Positions 39,926-61,050 of a DNA stretch of 64,000 bases are shown in pieces. Each line of letters starts with the position of its first letter. The first letter of the stretch is position 1. The notes beneath the pieces were generated by a model. The model saw only the letters and a list, made by a program, of their open reading frames with translations. It was not told the origin of the DNA and ran no database searches. Origin of the DNA: Gammaproteobacteria bacterium. Its GTDB lineage: Bacteria; Pseudomonadota; Gammaproteobacteria; Steroidobacterales; GCA-2729495. The translations under genes were made by a program, and so were the position numbers. The stretch lies in the NCBI GenBank assembly GCA_030583605.1, contig CP129466.1:1371001-1435000 (forward strand). Direction: 5' to 3'.

Positions 39926-43558
<3,633 letters not shown>

Positions 43559-43691: not shown

Positions 43692-44015
43692 GTGCCATTT
43701 GTCGTCACCGGAAACTGCATCAACTGCAAACATACCGAATGTGCCGTGGTTTGCCCGGCTGATTGCTTTCACGAAGGCCCGAATTTTCTGGTCATCGATC
43801 CCGAGACCTGTATCGACTGCGTGTTCTGCGTCCCAGCCTGCCCGGTTGGCGCAATAATGGAAATACGGGATGTACCGAAGGATCAGCGGGTGTTCGTGCG
43901 GCTGAACGAGGAACTGGCGGCCATCTGGCCCACGATCAAGACCCGGAAGCCGCCCCCGCCCGATGCGGAGGAGTGGGACGGCGTGCCGGACAAGCTCAAG
44001 CTGCTCGAGCGGTAA
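43692..44015 (+). CDS. 7Fe ferredoxin (FdxA-type), NifJ-linked
   Basis: 107 aa, GTG start behind [29 protein letters not shown] gives a [3Fe-4S]/[4Fe-4S] Azotobacter-type motif and [13 protein letters not shown] the second cluster; the tail [20 protein letters not shown] is as in FdxA. A paralogue is at 60727. Its place opposite nifJ suggests it is the electron acceptor of that enzyme. Confidence 0.92.
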
Positions 44016-44114: not shown

Positions 44115-44495
44115 TCAGGGCCGCCGCCCGGCAAATATCGCCCGTGACATCAGCAGTCCGAGCCCGGCGCCGAGCGTGGCCGCGACCGCGACGATGACAA
44201 ATGTACCGACGGCCAGGGCCACACCCACCACCGTCGGTACGGCCAGGTCCTGCATTCCCATCACGTTGCCGATCGTGCCACCGGGGCGTTGTCCCATGTA
44301 GCCCGCGAAGATCACTCCGGCGAATATCGCAGGCGCGAGCGCCAGCGCGCCGAGCACTCCGCCGACCGTTCTGATCCAGCGTCGCGGCTCCTCGCCGGTG
44401 GCCATCCGCTGCGCCAACGCCCGCAGCAACTGCCGCGTCAGGAAGAATGTGACCGGCACGCCGATCAGGTAGCCGAGAATGATCGATAGCAACAT
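44115..44495 (-). CDS. Three-helix membrane protein
   Basis: 126 aa with helices at about 2-22, 42-68 and 86-116; Gly-rich loop GYMGQRPGGTIGNVMG between helices two and three. GGAG lies 11 bases before the ATG. No family recognised. Convergent with the ferredoxin and followed on the same strand by no close gene. Confidence 0.6.
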   Translation of the reverse strand: MLLSIILGYLIGVPVTFFLTRQLLRALAQRMATGEEPRRWIRTVGGVLGALALAPAIFAGVIFAGYMGQRPGGTIGNVMGMQDLAVPTVVGVALAVGTFVIVAVAATLGAGLGLLMSRAIFAGRRP

Positions 44496-44566: not shown

Positions 44567-44992
44567 TCACTGCCCGGCCTGTGGCCCCTTGCGTCCGACG
44601 AGCACCTTCTTTGCGCCTACGCCTGCGACACCGAGCACATAGATCGATCCCATGAAGCCGGCCCAGATGGCAAGGAATGTCAGACTTTTTCTCACGCCGA
44701 CCCTGAAGCGAGCGCGGTCATAGTCGCTTTCGGAGCGGACGACGGTCCGCTCATGAAAGAGAAACTGGCCCAGTGCATAGCACGGCTGGCCGGGTTCCGG
44801 CTGAAATACCGGGATTTGTCCTTCTTCGATTTCCCGCCAGCTGCTGCATTCCGGGGCGCGCAGATCGGCGACGACGTCCGGGTCGCGGCGTGGCCATGTC
44901 GAAACGGCCAGGACCAGGGTTGATATCAGGAACACGATTGCGAAGAGCCCCCAGAATTTCTGCCAGGCATTGAGTCGCTGGAACATGTGCAT
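44567..44992 (-). CDS. Membrane protein with two helices
   Basis: 141 aa. An N-terminal helix (about 12-31), a soluble section of about 75 residues with two cysteines (APECSSWREI and GQPCYALGQF) likely outside the cytoplasm, and a second helix (about 104-124) ending in a basic tail. Unknown family; 71 bases upstream of the preceding membrane-protein gene on the same strand, so possibly one transcript. Confidence 0.6.
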   Translation of the reverse strand: MHMFQRLNAWQKFWGLFAIVFLISTLVLAVSTWPRRDPDVVADLRAPECSSWREIEEGQIPVFQPEPGQPCYALGQFLFHERTVVRSESDYDRARFRVGVRKSLTFLAIWAGFMGSIYVLGVAGVGAKKVLVGRKGPQAGQ

Positions 44993-45102: not shown

Positions 45103-45663
45103 TCAGTCGGGGAAGACGCGCTGCGCCTGCAACTGGCCGTGCTCATCGAAGATTTCCCACAGCCCGTCTTTCCTGCGGTCCCGGAAGTGCCCGCGCTTGC
45201 GCAGCTGGCCGCTTGGGTAGAAATACTCCCAGAAACCATCCGGCCGGCCTTCCAGGTAGCTGCCACGTTCATTGAGCCGGCCGTTCTCGAAGTATGTCTC
45301 ATATGGCCCGTCGAGCTCGCCGTCGCGATAGTTCAGGCGTTCCCAGATGCGGCCATTCTCGTAGCGTCGCTCGAACGCGCCTTCCGGGCGGCCTTCGCGT
45401 GAGTTGCCTTTCAGTTTCAGGCGGCCGTTGTCGTAATGGATCTCCCACGGGCCGTCGCGTTCGCCGTTCTTGAACGTGCCGCGGAACTCCAGGCGACCGT
45501 TCTCGTGGAAGAACTCCCACAGGCCTTCCTGTTTGCCGTTGTGGTAGCTTCCGCGGAACTCGGGCTGGCCGTTGCGGTAGAAATACTCGGTTGGGCCTTC
45601 AGGGCGGCTGAAGCGTGATGCGAGCCCGACCTTTCGCAGAATGGCATGGAAGAGATTGAGCAC
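45103..45663 (-). CDS. MORN-type (YwqK-like) repeat protein, short paralogue
   Basis: 186 aa made of about seven 23-residue repeats of the pattern NGxxxxRGxYxNGxxDGxWExYx, for example YFYRNGQPEFRGSYHNGKQE and EYFYPSGQLRKRGHFRDRRK. MORN-like sheets bind lipids or partners; bacterial YwqK proteins are linked to toxin-antitoxin systems only in annotation. No signal peptide. Lies 17 bases behind the larger paralogue. Confidence 0.8.
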   Translation of the reverse strand: MLNLFHAILRKVGLASRFSRPEGPTEYFYRNGQPEFRGSYHNGKQEGLWEFFHENGRLEFRGTFKNGERDGPWEIHYDNGRLKLKGNSREGRPEGAFERRYENGRIWERLNYRDGELDGPYETYFENGRLNERGSYLEGRPDGFWEYFYPSGQLRKRGHFRDRRKDGLWEIFDEHGQLQAQRVFPD

Positions 45664-45680: not shown

Positions 45681-46460
45681 CTATTGGAGCACGCCGTCCT
45701 GGTACGTGCCTTTCTCCCTGATCCTGCCGTCGTCATCGTACAGCTCGTAGGCGCCATCGAGGACACCGTCGCGGAACGTGCCGCGGGCCATGAGTCGGCC
45801 GTCGGCGGCCAAGGTCTCGAACGGCCCGTTCTTGGCGCCATCGACGTAGGTTTCGCGCGATTTCAAACTGCCATTGGGGTGAAAGGTTTCGAGGACGCCG
45901 TCGGCCCCGTCGTTGCGGAAGACGCCTTTCTGCGCGAGTTGGCCGTTGCTGTGAAACCACTCCCAGACGCCATCCTTCCGGCCGTCGTGGAAGCTGCCCC
46001 GCGCATCGACCTGCCCGTTCTCGTGATACGCGACGTATGGTCCGTCCCGCCGGTCGTTCCTGTGCGTGCCCTCCGATCGAGGCGCGCCGTTCGGAAAGCC
46101 GGTCCGGAATGGTCCATTGCGTACGCCGTCGACGTACTGGCCCTTTGAACGCCATTGCCCGTTCGGGTACAGCAGCTCCCACGGGCCTTCCTTCCTGCCG
46201 TTGTGGTACGCCTGCCGCTCCCGCAATTGCCCGTTACGGTGAAACCACTCCTGCGGCCCATCGAGCTGGCCTTCGCGGAAGCAGCCCTTGTGTTCGGCCT
46301 GCCCATCCTCGAAATAGGACTCGTATGCGCCGTCGAGCTGGCCGTTACGGTAGCTGCCCCGGCCGCGAATTTCGCCGGCCTCGCCCTGCATCTCGAAAGG
46401 CCCGTCGGCGGGGGCTTCGTCGGTCGCCGATCTGAACCAGGAAAGAATCGACTTCTTCAT
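45681..46460 (-). CDS. MORN-type (YwqK-like) repeat protein, long paralogue
   Basis: 259 aa, about ten 23-residue repeats of the same type, e.g. ESYFEDGQAEHKGCFREGQL and ELLYPNGQWRSKGQYVDGVR, after a short N-terminal segment MKKSILSWFRSATDEAP. Repeats differ enough at DNA level to show the array is old. Divergent from the Nod-like gene, sharing a 314-base control region with it. Confidence 0.8.
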   Translation of the reverse strand: MKKSILSWFRSATDEAPADGPFEMQGEAGEIRGRGSYRNGQLDGAYESYFEDGQAEHKGCFREGQLDGPQEWFHRNGQLRERQAYHNGRKEGPWELLYPNGQWRSKGQYVDGVRNGPFRTGFPNGAPRSEGTHRNDRRDGPYVAYHENGQVDARGSFHDGRKDGVWEWFHSNGQLAQKGVFRNDGADGVLETFHPNGSLKSRETYVDGAKNGPFETLAADGRLMARGTFRDGVLDGAYELYDDDGRIREKGTYQDGVLQ

Positions 46461-46774
46461 GCTGCCCGAGCGTAACCAAATTCCAGCGGTAAGGGCTTCA
46501 CGAAAAGATAGGTACTATCCGTATCATCGTGACGGTCAATTTTGCCGCGAAAGCGTGTAAAAAAAATACCGCAGTCGTCGTGTGCGGTCGCGGCGGGCAT
46601 GACGGGGTCCACCGGTGAACAGATGGAGCGAGACGCGAGGCAAACGGCCATTTTACGTATAATTACCTACCGGTGATTGATCCAGGTCATTTACTCAGGG
46701 GTCGAAACTATCAAGCTAGCGCCCGACGGTGGTGTATACCGGATGACGGCGGGACGTTTTAAGGAGCTTTAACC
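46461..46774. other. 314-base divergent control region, MORN gene / nod
   Basis: AT-richer than the surroundings, with an A-run near 46558-46567, a TATAAT at 46658-46663, and an FNR/Dnr-like box at 46677-46690. TATCAA at 46709-46714 could be the -10 of a class II FNR-type promoter. The nod leader carries AAGGAG 9 bases before its ATG. No gene is supported. Confidence 0.6.
46677..46690 (+). promoter_or_regulatory. FNR/Dnr-like box upstream of nod
   Basis: TTGATCCAGGTCAT matches the FNR/ANR/Dnr consensus TTGAT-N4-ATCAA with two mismatches in the right half. Centre is about 39 bases before the expected start of transcription downstream of TATCAA, near the -41.5 position of class II activation. 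Confidence 0.6.
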
Positions 46775-49180
46775 ATGACTACGAAGACGGTCGCGAGCTC
46801 GGGCGACAGCAACCTGGCGATGTGGTTGCTCAATAAGAAGAACTGGTTCGTGCATTTCATGATCGTGACGCTGATCAGCGTCGTTGGCCTGTTGTACCTC
46901 GGCCAGCAGACGTATTCCGGCGCACCACCGTTGGTGAAATTCGTGACCCCGGACGGGGAAACGTTCATCAGCAAGGAGCAGATCTCGCGCGGCCAGGAGA
47001 TTTTCCAGCTGCGGGGGCTCATGCTCTACGGCTCGTTCTGGGGTGACGGTGCCGACCGCGGTCCGGACTTTACCGCCGATGCCCTGCACCGCATGGTCGT
47101 GACGATGCGGCAGTTCTATGCCGACGAGATGAAGGCACGCAACGGGGTCAGCGAACTGACGCCGTTCGAGCAGGACGCCATTGCCCAGCGGGTCATCCGG
47201 GAACTGCACAACAACGCCTACGACGCGAACGCACAGCAGATCGTCCTGACCGCCGGTCAGGTCTATGCATTTGAGCGCCTGGTCGAGCACTACACCCGGA
47301 TGTTCACCGACCCGACCTACCGGGACCGCATGGAGCCGATCAACCAGGTGTCCGGAGCGGACAACCTCCGTGCGCTCAGCTCATTCTTCTTCTGGGGCGG
47401 CTGGGTAGCCGCTGCCAACCGGCCGGGTCAGGAGTACAGCTATACGCATAACTGGCCTTACGATCCGGAGGCAGGCAACCACGCTACCAGCGCGACGTTC
47501 ATCTGGACCTTCATATCCATCTTTGCGCTGTGGGTAGGCATCAGCGTCGTGCTGTATGTCTACGGCCAGATGAAGATGCAGCCGATCGACCTGTTCGAGT
47601 CACAGGGCAGCGGTAACGGGCACTGGCTGACGACGACGGACCTGGAAAACGGGTACGTGCGTCCGACGCAGCGTTCGACCTACAAGTTCTTCGCCCTGGC
47701 CATCATCGTGTTCGGCCTGCAGGTGCTGGCCGGCATCATCAGTGCGACGGACTTCATTCGTCCGTTCGGCATCAACCTCCAGGAGCTCATTCCGTTCACG
47801 GTTTCGCGCAGCTATCACGCGCTGTTGCAGATCTTCTGGTTCTTCATGTGCTGGGTGGGCTATACGATCTTCTTCCTGCCCAGGCTGGCCAAGGTGCCGA
47901 AGGGCCAGAAGTTCCTGATCAACCTGCTGTTCGGTTTGGCCGTGATCGTGGCCGTCGGGGCCCTCGGCGGCATCTACACCGGCCAGCGCGGCTGGATGAG
48001 CGACAAGATGTCGTACTGGTTCGGCAGCCAGGGTTGGGAGTTCATCGAGCTTGGGCGCTTCTTCCAGCTCCTGCTGCTCGGTGCCTTCACGCTGTGGATC
48101 TACATCATCTATCGCGGCATCAAGCCCTGGATCAGCATGAAGAACGTCTGGTCCGTGCCGGCGTGGCTGCTCTGGGGCAGCGGCGTGATGGTGCTGTTCC
48201 TGTTCTTCAGCGTCCTCATGGTGCCGAGCTCCAACTGGGCCGTCGCCGACTACTGGCGCTGGATGACGGTGCACATGTGGGTCGAGGTCACCTTCGAGGT
48301 GTTCACGACCGTCATCGTCGCCTACCTGCTGGTCCAGATGGGCCTGGTGACCAGGCTGATGGCCGAGCGTGTCATCTTCCTGGCGGTGATGTTGTTCTTC
48401 GTGACTGCGCTGAACGGCATCTCTCATAACTTCTACTGGATCGCCAAGCCGACGGGCATCATTGCGGTCGGCAGCGTGTTCTCCACCCTGCAGGTGTTGC
48501 CACTGCTGCTGCTCACGCTCGATGCCTGGCAGATGCGCCAGGAGGGCATCAAGGCCAATGAGTTCCGCGTCCAGGGCAAGCAGGCGTTCGTGATGGAGAG
48601 TGTCTGGCTGTTCATCCTCGCGGTGAACTTCTGGAACATCTTCGGCGCCGGTGTCTTCGGTTCGCTGATCACTCTGCCGCTGGTGAACTACTACGAGCAT
48701 GCGACCTACATGACGCAGAACCACGCTCACGCGGCGATGTTCGGCGTCAAGGGCAACGTCGCACTGGCAGGCCTGCTGTTCTGCTGCCAGCACCTGTTCG
48801 AGAAGTCTGCCTGGAGCGAGAAGCTGGTGCGAACCGCCTTCTGGTCGCTGCAGATCGGCCTGGCGCTCATGATGTTCCTCGACCTGTTCCCGGTCGGCCT
48901 GTACCAGATCTATGTGGTACTGACGGACGGCTTCTGGCACGCGCGGTCGGCGGACATCATCCAGGGGCCAGTGTTCGTGACGTTGACCTACCTGCGCATG
49001 ATCGGCGGGTCGATCTTCGTCGTCGGAGGCCTGTTGCCGCTGATCTGGTTCGTGCTCTCGCGGGGTGCGCGTCTGCGTCGCGAGACGGACGTCGAGACCG
49101 ACGAGTGGGCGGCCTACCAGAAGGAGTACGGCCACGAGAGCGGCAAGGAGTGGGCCGCGCAGCCGGAAACCCGACTCTGA
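46775..49180 (+). CDS. nod: Putative nitric oxide dismutase (qNOR-like, Nod type)
   Basis: 801 aa, with the quinol-NOR plan: N-terminal helix, a periplasmic cytochrome c-like fold without haem motif (about 45-235), and a 12-helix haem-copper oxidase core. FeB ligand His500 and Glu504 are in VHMWVEVTFEVF; haem ligands are in NHAHAAMFG (His650, His652). Three departures from qNOR stand out: GTGHHYYW becomes GISHNFYW (second FeB His replaced by Asn552), SALE becomes STLQ (Glu replaced by Gln573), and the quinol site looks broken (HxxxE becomes His348-xxx-Gln352; GD becomes Gly744-Gly745). This is the pattern reported for Nod of Methylomirabilis and strain HdN1, proposed to turn 2 NO into N2 and O2. 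A database would call it norB. AAGGAG precedes the ATG. No other denitrification gene is in the window. Confidence 0.85.
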   Translation: MTTKTVASSGDSNLAMWLLNKKNWFVHFMIVTLISVVGLLYLGQQTYSGAPPLVKFVTPDGETFISKEQISRGQEIFQLRGLMLYGSFWGDGADRGPDFTADALHRMVVTMRQFYADEMKARNGVSELTPFEQDAIAQRVIRELHNNAYDANAQQIVLTAGQVYAFERLVEHYTRMFTDPTYRDRMEPINQVSGADNLRALSSFFFWGGWVAAANRPGQEYSYTHNWPYDPEAGNHATSATFIWTFISIFALWVGISVVLYVYGQMKMQPIDLFESQGSGNGHWLTTTDLENGYVRPTQRSTYKFFALAIIVFGLQVLAGIISATDFIRPFGINLQELIPFTVSRSYHALLQIFWFFMCWVGYTIFFLPRLAKVPKGQKFLINLLFGLAVIVAVGALGGIYTGQRGWMSDKMSYWFGSQGWEFIELGRFFQLLLLGAFTLWIYIIYRGIKPWISMKNVWSVPAWLLWGSGVMVLFLFFSVLMVPSSNWAVADYWRWMTVHMWVEVTFEVFTTVIVAYLLVQMGLVTRLMAERVIFLAVMLFFVTALNGISHNFYWIAKPTGIIAVGSVFSTLQVLPLLLLTLDAWQMRQEGIKANEFRVQGKQAFVMESVWLFILAVNFWNIFGAGVFGSLITLPLVNYYEHATYMTQNHAHAAMFGVKGNVALAGLLFCCQHLFEKSAWSEKLVRTAFWSLQIGLALMMFLDLFPVGLYQIYVVLTDGFWHARSADIIQGPVFVTLTYLRMIGGSIFVVGGLLPLIWFVLSRGARLRRETDVETDEWAAYQKEYGHESGKEWAAQPETRL

Positions 49181-49210: not shown

Positions 49211-49266
49211 GGGCCCCGCGGGCGTCGTTCAAACGATCGAACGACACCGCGGGGCCCGATCTTTTT
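49211..49266 (+). terminator. Rho-independent terminator after nod
   Basis: Long hairpin: GGGCCCCGCGG...GTCGTTC pairs with GAACGAC...CCGCGGGGCCC around an 8-base loop, followed by GATCTTTTT. Confidence 0.85.
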
Positions 49267-49288
49267 CCGGATCGATTTTTCAGGTTCC

Positions 49289-60726: not shown

Positions 60727-61050
60727 TCAGCGCTGCAGGTGCTTGAGCTTGTCGTCGACCTTGGCCCACTCGTCGGCGTCTGCCGGCGGCGTACCGGCCT
60801 CGGTGATCACCGGCCAGAGCTTGGACAGCTCTGCGTTCAGCTGCTTGAACTGCCCCTGGCTCTCCGGGACTTCGTCCTCGGACATGATGGCCTCGACCGG
60901 GCACTCGGGCTCGCAGAGCGTGCAATCGATGCACTCGTCAGGGTCGATGACCAGCATGTTGGGCCCCTCGTGGAAACAGTCGACCGGGCAGACCTCCACG
61001 CAGTCCATGTACTTGCACTTGATGCATTTCTCGGTGACGACGAACGTCAT
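60727..61050 (-). CDS. fdxA: Ferredoxin FdxA
   Basis: 107 aa. [20 protein letters not shown] and [16 protein letters not shown], 7Fe ferredoxin, with the standard FdxA tail [20 protein letters not shown]. About 55 % similar by eye to the NifJ-linked copy at 43692; this one keeps the canonical sequence and is probably the housekeeping copy. Convergent with dsbC. Confidence 0.95.

What the first reader, a model, noticed from the sequence alone, without database searches (positions are those of the whole stretch)
46775..49180. qNOR homologue with the residue pattern of nitric oxide dismutase (Nod)
Seen: in the core of an otherwise complete quinol-NOR, the FeB His-His pair is His551-Asn552 (SHNFYW), the conserved Glu of SALE is Gln573 (STLQ), and two expected quinol-site acids are Gln352 and Gly745. 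Known: putative NO dismutases of Ca. Methylomirabilis oxyfera and strain HdN1 carry these His-to-Asn and quinol-site changes and are proposed to make O2 and N2 from NO. Inference: this organism may produce its own oxygen from NO. Few cultured bacteria are known to carry nod.
Basis: partly seen in the sequence, partly recalled or inferred. Interest (0 to 1): 0.95.

Follow-up and report, generated by a model that had tools for sequence, protein, structure and literature searches.

The report
NO dismutase with linked partner genes
A bacterial genome carries an intact gene of the Nod family, an enzyme predicted to split nitric oxide into nitrogen and oxygen in the dark, and beside it stand a ferredoxin gene and two MORN-repeat genes that recur with it in relatives and are likely its partners.

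Summary
The ORF at 46775-49180 (+, 801 aa) is intact and has the published Nod pattern: Asn552 for an FeB His, Gln573 for the catalytic Glu, and a lost quinol site (Thr325 for His328, Arg329 for Glu332, Gly745 for Asp746, Geobacillus numbering). With these columns removed, trees still place the protein in the Nod clade (100/99), close to strain HdN1 (99/95). The genome also has NarG, a cytochrome cd1 nitrite reductase, a normal qNOR and an eNOR-like reductase, and no NosZ match. So the protein is a Nod by sequence and phylogeny; O2 production remains inferred.

New here is a conserved gene module. fdxA and MORN-repeat genes sit beside nod in 17 of 62 Nod loci, HdN1 included. In the family, MORN_2 matches occur in 15 of 16 nod-positive and 0 of 18 nod-negative genomes searched; a small membrane protein (B) occurs in 10 of those 16 and in none of the 18. 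A search of held papers for nod with MORN found none. In some relatives an eNOR-like NO reductase lies directly downstream of nod.

The parts
46775..49180 (+). nod: Nod-family heme-copper protein, 801 aa
   Evidence: ORF; Pfam NorB_cytochrome_c-like and COX1; Nod clade in trees; model like 3ayf qNOR, TM 0.85
48425..48430 (+). codons of His551-Asn552, FeB-site pair; the second His is Asn
   Evidence: canonical rows have His-His
48491..48493 (+). codon of Gln573, in place of the catalytic Glu
47747..47761 (+). codons 325-329: Thr325 and Arg329 in place of quinol-site His328 and Glu332
   Evidence: alignment to 3ayf and residue tables
49007..49009 (+). codon of Gly745 in place of quinol-site Asp746
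43692..44015 (+). fdxA: 7Fe-type ferredoxin, 107 aa, nod-linked (the 7Fe label is from recall of the family)
   Evidence: Fer4 and DUF3470; beside nod in the same 17 of 62 Nod loci as MORN
44115..44495 (-). protein A: small protein, membrane-like by eye, no Pfam family
44567..44992 (-). protein B: small protein, membrane-like by eye, two Cys invariant in 8 of 8 rows, no Pfam family
   Evidence: in 10 of 34 family genomes searched, all nod-positive
45103..45663 (-). MORN-repeat protein 2, 186 aa
   Evidence: MORN_2, E 9.8e-27
45681..46460 (-). MORN-repeat protein 1, 259 aa, divergent from nod
   Evidence: MORN_2, E 1.8e-33; family-wide link with nod
46677..46690 (+). FNR/DNR-like palindrome, 2 mismatches, about 98 b before nod (weak)
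   Evidence: only slightly above chance over 61 loci
49211..49266 (+). G+C-rich inverted repeat followed by T run, probable terminator of nod
   Evidence: read by eye in the sequence; the pattern scan names a shorter stem at 49257-49274, and its count is at chance
39926..43558 (-). pyruvate:ferredoxin/flavodoxin oxidoreductase-like protein, 1210 aa, neighbour of fdxA in some close relatives
   Evidence: 4 of 62 Nod loci and the window

Best explanation
The gene at 46775-49180 encodes a Nod-family heme-copper protein that is predicted to dismutate nitric oxide (2 NO to N2 + O2), likely as an O2-yielding end of the denitrification that this genome's NarG and cytochrome cd1 nitrite reductase would begin. 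Shown: the intact frame, the Nod residue pattern, the place in the Nod clade, the qNOR-like fold of the model, and the presence of narG and a cd1 nitrite reductase gene with no NosZ match. Inferred: with the quinol site lost, the protein does not draw two electrons per turnover from the quinol pool, so two NO react at the heme b3-metal site, whose third His is Asn, and leave as N2 and O2. Also inferred: the adjacent ferredoxin, the two MORN-repeat proteins and proteins A and B serve Nod. The role proposed is that the ferredoxin supplies the few electrons needed to reduce the site before, or to rescue it during, turnover, while the MORN and membrane proteins help assembly or docking. The O2 would be respired by the genome's aa3 and cbb3 oxidases.
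For: Residue pattern: Asn552 and Gln573 in the window and in 0 of 18 canonical qNOR rows; quinol His kept in 0 of 74 Nod-type rows, matching the published criteria (PMC3413370, passages; PMC10286720, passages). Trees without the six diagnostic columns: the 38 Nod-type rows among 64 form one clade, SH-aLRT 100; 18 among 29 rows, 100/99, and the window's relatives join HdN1 with 99/95. Fold: 3ayf, E 2.7e-41, TM 0.85. NO supply: NarG at 2178 bits against a cut-off of 1084; cd1 nitrite reductase, 720 aa with two cytochrome c domains. No NosZ match in this complete genome and none over the cut-off in the 9 genomes of the genus. A separate ordinary qNOR in the same genome leaves no need for nod to be a second qNOR. 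Oxidases: aa3 and cbb3 subunit I over their cut-offs. Partners: fdxA and MORN beside nod in the same 17 of 62 Nod loci; MORN_2 in 15 of 16 nod-positive and 0 of 18 nod-negative family genomes, Fisher p 8.6e-9 (not corrected for kinship).
Against: No activity is tested here, and no Nod has been isolated or characterised (PMC13386854, which also says that opposing results exist). Nor sequences with Nod features were reported from foraminifera that nevertheless made N2O (PMC6636425 citing Woehle 2018; passages). The genome keeps a qNOR and an eNOR-like reductase, so NO could leave as N2O. In some close relatives an eNOR-like NO reductase, not an oxygen user, follows nod. No P450 was found; there is one FA_desaturase match (60.9 bits, over its cut-off of 29.7) that I did not identify further; the search for diiron monooxygenases was uninformative because its control was silent. 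So no dedicated O2-consuming pathway was found. A ferredoxin partner could also mean an electron-consuming reaction. Most Nod loci (45 of 62) lack the fdxA-MORN pair in the stretch held, so the pair cannot be needed by every Nod.
Confidence: 0.6

Rival explanations
1. The protein is an NO reductase or NO scavenger that makes N2O with electrons from a donor other than quinol, for example the adjacent ferredoxin or, in relatives, a b561 cytochrome.
For: Electron-transfer genes cluster with nod: a ferredoxin-type match within 5 kb in 24 of 62 loci and cytochrome b561 in 7 of 62. In relatives an eNOR-like NO reductase lies 1.1-2.1 kb downstream on the same strand (L007, L009, L018 of the 62, and G007; residue read in L007, L018 and G007). 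Others have raised NO detoxification because LuxR and NsrR regulators stand near nod (PMC13386854).
Against: The catalytic Glu and an FeB His that all 18 canonical qNOR rows keep are replaced. The genome already has a qNOR and an eNOR-like gene.
Confidence: 0.27
2. The protein serves mainly in NO sensing or in protection of the respiratory chain, with no bulk turnover.
For: Relatives of a LuxR-type/PAS regulator within 5 kb of nod in 11 of 62 loci; a weak FNR/DNR-like site upstream.
Against: The other His ligands and Glu504 are kept in 74 of 74 Nod-type rows, and the model keeps the whole fold of a catalytic qNOR.
Confidence: 0.11
3. It is a decaying qNOR copy.
For: Active-site substitutions.
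Against: Intact frame; no amino-acid change against a near relative; one clade spanning several phyla with the same substitutions.
Confidence: 0.02

Closest known systems
Nod of gammaproteobacterium HdN1 (P0101, L039)
   Same: 64-65% identity; same Asn, Gln and lost quinol His; joins the window's group in trees; same fdxA-MORN-MORN-nod neighbourhood
   Different: Trp and Lys at positions 325 and 329 and Ile at 745; HdN1 has a b561 gene directly after nod, its fdxA points the other way, and no match to proteins A and B was found within the stretch held
Nod of Candidatus Methylomirabilis (L041; stands in for DAMO_2434/2437, which were not fetched)
   Same: Asn552, Gln573, Gln352 and Gly745; same clade
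   Different: 59% identity; Glu and Gly at 325 and 329; a different branch of the clade; no fdxA or MORN match in the stretch held, which has only about 2.1 kb upstream
Bacteroidota Nod-like proteins (Algoriphagus, Indibacter, Hydrotalea and others)
   Same: Asn552 and Gln573; sister clade in the careful tree
   Different: 18 of 18 rows of this type (one of them Myxococcales) keep the quinol-site His and have Ser at 352; 43-46% identity
Canonical qNOR (3ayf; the genome's own copy at C1:3331917)
   Same: Fold, 32% identity; the other His ligands
   Different: The window's protein lacks one FeB His, the catalytic Glu and the quinol-site His, Glu and Asp that qNORs have; separate clades with 100/100 support

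Membership tests
Nod (putative NO dismutase) | FeB His replaced by Asn | tested here: met
   Asn552
Nod (putative NO dismutase) | Catalytic-site Glu replaced by Gln | tested here: met
   Gln573
Nod (putative NO dismutase) | Quinol-site residues His328, Glu332, Asp746 lost | tested here: met
   Thr325, Arg329, Gly745
Nod (putative NO dismutase) | Phylogenetic place with HdN1 and Methylomirabilis Nod, apart from qNOR | tested here: met
   with diagnostic columns left out; L041 used for Methylomirabilis
Nod (putative NO dismutase) | qNOR-like fold, cytochrome-c-like domain without heme c | tested here: met
   AlphaFold2 pLDDT 83, pTM 0.85; Foldseek to 3ayf; Pfam NorB_cytochrome_c-like; no CxxCH motif. 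Transmembrane helices were not counted
Nod (putative NO dismutase) | Makes N2 and O2 from NO | not testable with these tools
   needs biochemistry; not shown for any isolated Nod (PMC13386854)
canonical qNOR | His-His FeB pair, catalytic Glu and quinol-binding residues | tested here: not met
canonical qNOR | Groups with qNORs in a tree | tested here: not met

The most novel reading that the evidence does not exclude
In a broad group of Gammaproteobacteria, HdN1 included, Nod is not a lone enzyme but the core of a dedicated module: a 7Fe ferredoxin and two MORN-repeat proteins (plus membrane proteins A and B in this genus) are obligate partners of NO dismutation, with the ferredoxin priming or rescuing the active site that the lost quinol site can no longer reduce.
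Probability: 0.3. Interest if true: 0.8.

Novelty: new member of a known kind. Interest (0 to 1): 0.62.

Why it matters
How, and whether, Nod makes O2 from NO is still open, and a 2026 paper says the enzyme has not been isolated (PMC13386854). If Nod needs partners, that would help to explain this. A closed genome with one nod, a nitrite reductase, no NosZ match and a compact set of co-occurring genes gives a concrete list of proteins to co-express, and strain HdN1 carries the same fdxA-MORN-nod set. If the module proves necessary, dark oxygen production becomes directly testable, and the MORN gene would serve as a second genomic marker for it in this group.

Tried and rejected
Gln352 as a quinol-site acid: rejected, since canonical qNOR rows have Gly, Ala or Val there.

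An oxidase next to nod as evidence of O2 use: I first read the heme-copper gene downstream of nod in L007, L009, L018 and G007 as an oxygen reductase. In those read in frame (G007, L007, L018 and the genome's own copy) it has GHSSQQ where the genome's aa3 oxidase has GHPEVY. The own cbb3 oxidase also lacks Tyr there, so missing Tyr alone proves little; but a Gln at that place, with a cupredoxin subunit upstream, is the published mark of eNOR (PMC8756737, passages), so I count it as an NO reductase and not as support for O2 use. L009 was cut out of frame in that script and not read.

Monooxygenases: no P450; one FA_desaturase match of 60.9 bits, over its cut-off, not identified further; PF02332 gave nothing, but its control was silent too.

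NirK: matches in 19 of 21 genomes, none over the cut-off.

Regulation: the FNR/DNR-like site at 46677 is weak; 14 of 61 loci (2 more were too short) have a site with at most 2 mismatches against about 7.9 expected. In the window as a whole 18 such sites were found against 8.1 expected. The promoter and terminator scan gave counts at or below chance.

Papers on Nod activity: one search listing gave nothing relevant. Two wanted papers are not held. On earlier mention of the module: 0 held papers with both 'nitric oxide dismutase' and 'MORN repeat'; 0 mentions of ferredoxin or MORN in the paper closest to this question. One search, which also asked for ferredoxin, listed 15 of 2,056 papers, and only that listing was seen. 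So a printed mention of the ferredoxin link is not excluded.

Full report
WHAT IS THERE. The finding's coordinates hold one uninterrupted frame of 801 codons from ATG to stop on the + strand. Pfam sees the NorB cytochrome-c-like domain and the COX1 domain. The best solved relative is the qNOR of Geobacillus stearothermophilus, 3ayf (E 3.8e-131), and an AlphaFold2 model (pLDDT 83, pTM 0.85, 53-row alignment) matches it at TM 0.85.

THE RESIDUES. I aligned 114 rows: the protein, loci, and qNOR and cNOR genes from plasmid records, after dropping one duplicate and four fragments of 119. I sorted them by residues 325, 352, 552 and 573 into four types; counts are. 74 rows (63 distinct sequences, since overlap) are Nod-type: Asn552, Gln573, Gln352. 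None of them has the quinol-site His; 72 have Gly745, with Ala in L020 and Ile in HdN1. 18 rows, Bacteroidota and one Myxococcales, have Asn552 and Gln573 but keep the quinol His and have Ser352. 18 rows are canonical qNORs with His at 325, Glu (17) or Asp (1) at 329, His552, Glu573 and Asp745. 4 are cNORs. The window's protein is Nod-type with Thr325 and Arg329, the Thr/Arg pair that others report as common in environmental nod (PMC10286720, passages). The published Nod criteria are His to Asn, Glu to Gln and loss of the quinol site (PMC3413370, passages).

THE TREE. With six diagnostic columns removed, so that the pattern could not drive the result, 64 of the 114 rows gave one clade of the 38 Nod-type rows (SH-aLRT 100). 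In that tree the window's relatives join HdN1 with 97; the qNOR rows needed two changes and the Bacteroidota type had support 56, so the deeper order is unsure there. A careful tree of 29 rows, chosen without the rows flagged as long, gave Nod 100/99, the Bacteroidota type 99/96, qNOR 100/100, and the window's relatives with HdN1 99/95; it still warns of one long qNOR row, L083.

THE ORGANISM. The window lies in a one-contig genome of 3,370,111 bases, 100% complete. The nearest named record is WYBE01000071.1, titled as a MAG of Nevskiales bacterium PRO7, with 97.8% DNA identity over 22.4 kb. Nothing shows that this organism has been cultured. Of the 9 genomes of its genus searched (own included), 6 have a full nod, G004 a 315-residue and G001 a 79-residue piece, and G008 none.

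THE PATHWAY AROUND IT. The genome has NarG (2178 bits), a cytochrome cd1 nitrite reductase with two extra cytochrome c domains, an ordinary qNOR followed by a regulator-like ORF (Rrf2-type by recall only), an eNOR-like reductase, and aa3 and cbb3 oxidases. It has no NosZ match, no NirK over the cut-off and no P450. NO can thus be made; it could leave as N2O by two routes, or by Nod as proposed.

THE MODULE. The new observation is what stands beside nod. In the window the order is fdxA (+), A (-), B (-), MORN (-), MORN (-), nod (+). One search kept 80 of 136 relatives; 62 of these 80 are Nod-type. A strong FdxA match (E below 1e-40) within 5 kb of nod occurs in 17 of 62, and a MORN protein in exactly the same 17, HdN1 among them; 7 further loci have a weaker ferredoxin match within 0.5 kb. 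The other 38 have neither within 5 kb. Upstream sequence is shorter than 3.5 kb in 10 of the 62, so these are lower bounds. Of the 18 Bacteroidota-type loci, none has MORN and one has a weak ferredoxin-domain match inside a long protein. HdN1's two MORN proteins, ferredoxin, b561 and LuxR-type regulator were confirmed by Pfam. No MORN-like ORF was found in 122 kb of other stretches of the window's own genome. The window holds a second fdxA at 60727-61050 that is not nod-linked.

CO-OCCURRENCE. I gave 34 of the 37 family genomes, leaving out G018, G026 and G032, in which one search found no nod. MORN_2 matches (E up to 0.001) occur in 15 of 16 nod-positive and 0 of 18 nod-negative genomes. The repeat is 22 positions long and only 5 of 34 genomes reach the family's curated cut-off; the tool's control genomes were silent. 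The exception, G020, has only the 3' part of nod, at a contig start. In G025 some matches lie on other contigs, and in G004 MORN and B share a contig while the nod piece is on another. In the window's genome the only two MORN_2 matches are the two beside nod. Fisher's test gives 8.6e-9, but genomes are related, so this is not a corrected probability. G001 counts as nod-positive on a 79-residue piece. Protein B occurs in 10 of 34: G000-G007, G034 and G036, all nod-positive; it is missing from the 6 other nod-positive genomes and from the 18 nod-negative ones. B lies before nod in some genomes and directly after it in others, so the link survives rearrangement. B has two Cys invariant in 8 of 8 rows and two hydrophobic stretches (by eye).

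HOW IT MAY WORK. With the quinol site gone, Nod should not draw quinol electrons; dismutation needs none in balance, but the metal site probably has to be reduced to start. A dedicated ferredoxin next to nod suggests where such electrons come from. This step is inferred, and the topology is a difficulty: FdxA should be cytoplasmic, while heme b of this superfamily lies towards the outer face (both recalled). A membrane partner such as B, or in other families the b561 cytochrome near nod (7 of 62 loci), would have to bridge it.

RESULTS AGAINST. The eNOR-like gene that follows nod in L007, L009, L018 and G007 speaks for NO metabolism, not for O2 use. Most Nod loci lack the fdxA-MORN pair, so it is a lineage's solution and not a need of every Nod. 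A 2026 study of 66 nod MAGs found no clear O2-consuming system next to nod, mentions neither ferredoxin nor MORN in its main text, and states that Nod has not been isolated (PMC13386854; section 21 read whole; word search). Nod-like Nor of foraminifera went with N2O (PMC6636425, passages). Nod in Bacteroidota is known (PMC10264387, passages), so the breadth of nod seen here is not itself new.

VERDICT. Ordinary in kind, since it is a further Nod, but well placed: it comes from a closed genome and shows a conserved partner set, shared with strain HdN1, that I did not find described. Confidence is about 0.97 that it is a Nod-family protein, 0.6 that it makes O2, and 0.3 that the partner set is obligate in the way proposed.

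Noticed in passing
36778-59177 against L003: DNA divergence from the Nevskiales PRO7 MAG steps sharply: about 0.45% from 36778 to about 49277 and about 4.6% from there to 58777, with the step just after nod; nod itself differs at 2 of 2406 bases. This looks like a recent exchange of a block that holds nod, though a chimeric MAG contig is not excluded.
   Followed up: partly
L143:5713-7949 (own genome C1:1213712-1215948): An eNOR-like NO reductase (Gln for the oxidase Tyr) with a cupredoxin-type subunit; its relative lies directly downstream of nod in L007, L009, L018 and G007. Family models match it only below their oxidase cut-offs.
   Followed up: partly
L138:10982-13141 (own genome): Cytochrome cd1 nitrite reductase with two cytochrome c domains fused at its N-terminal side, 720 aa.
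   Followed up: no
L010, L013, L014, L018, L019, L022, L025, L036, L057, near nod: A conserved protein downstream of nod in 9 of 62 Nod loci; the L013 copy has no Pfam match.
   Followed up: no
39926-43558: A pyruvate:ferredoxin oxidoreductase-like gene, a kind of enzyme usually O2-sensitive (recalled), near fdxA and nod in 4 of 62 loci and the window.
   Followed up: no
60727-61050: A second fdxA, not linked to nod.
   Followed up: no
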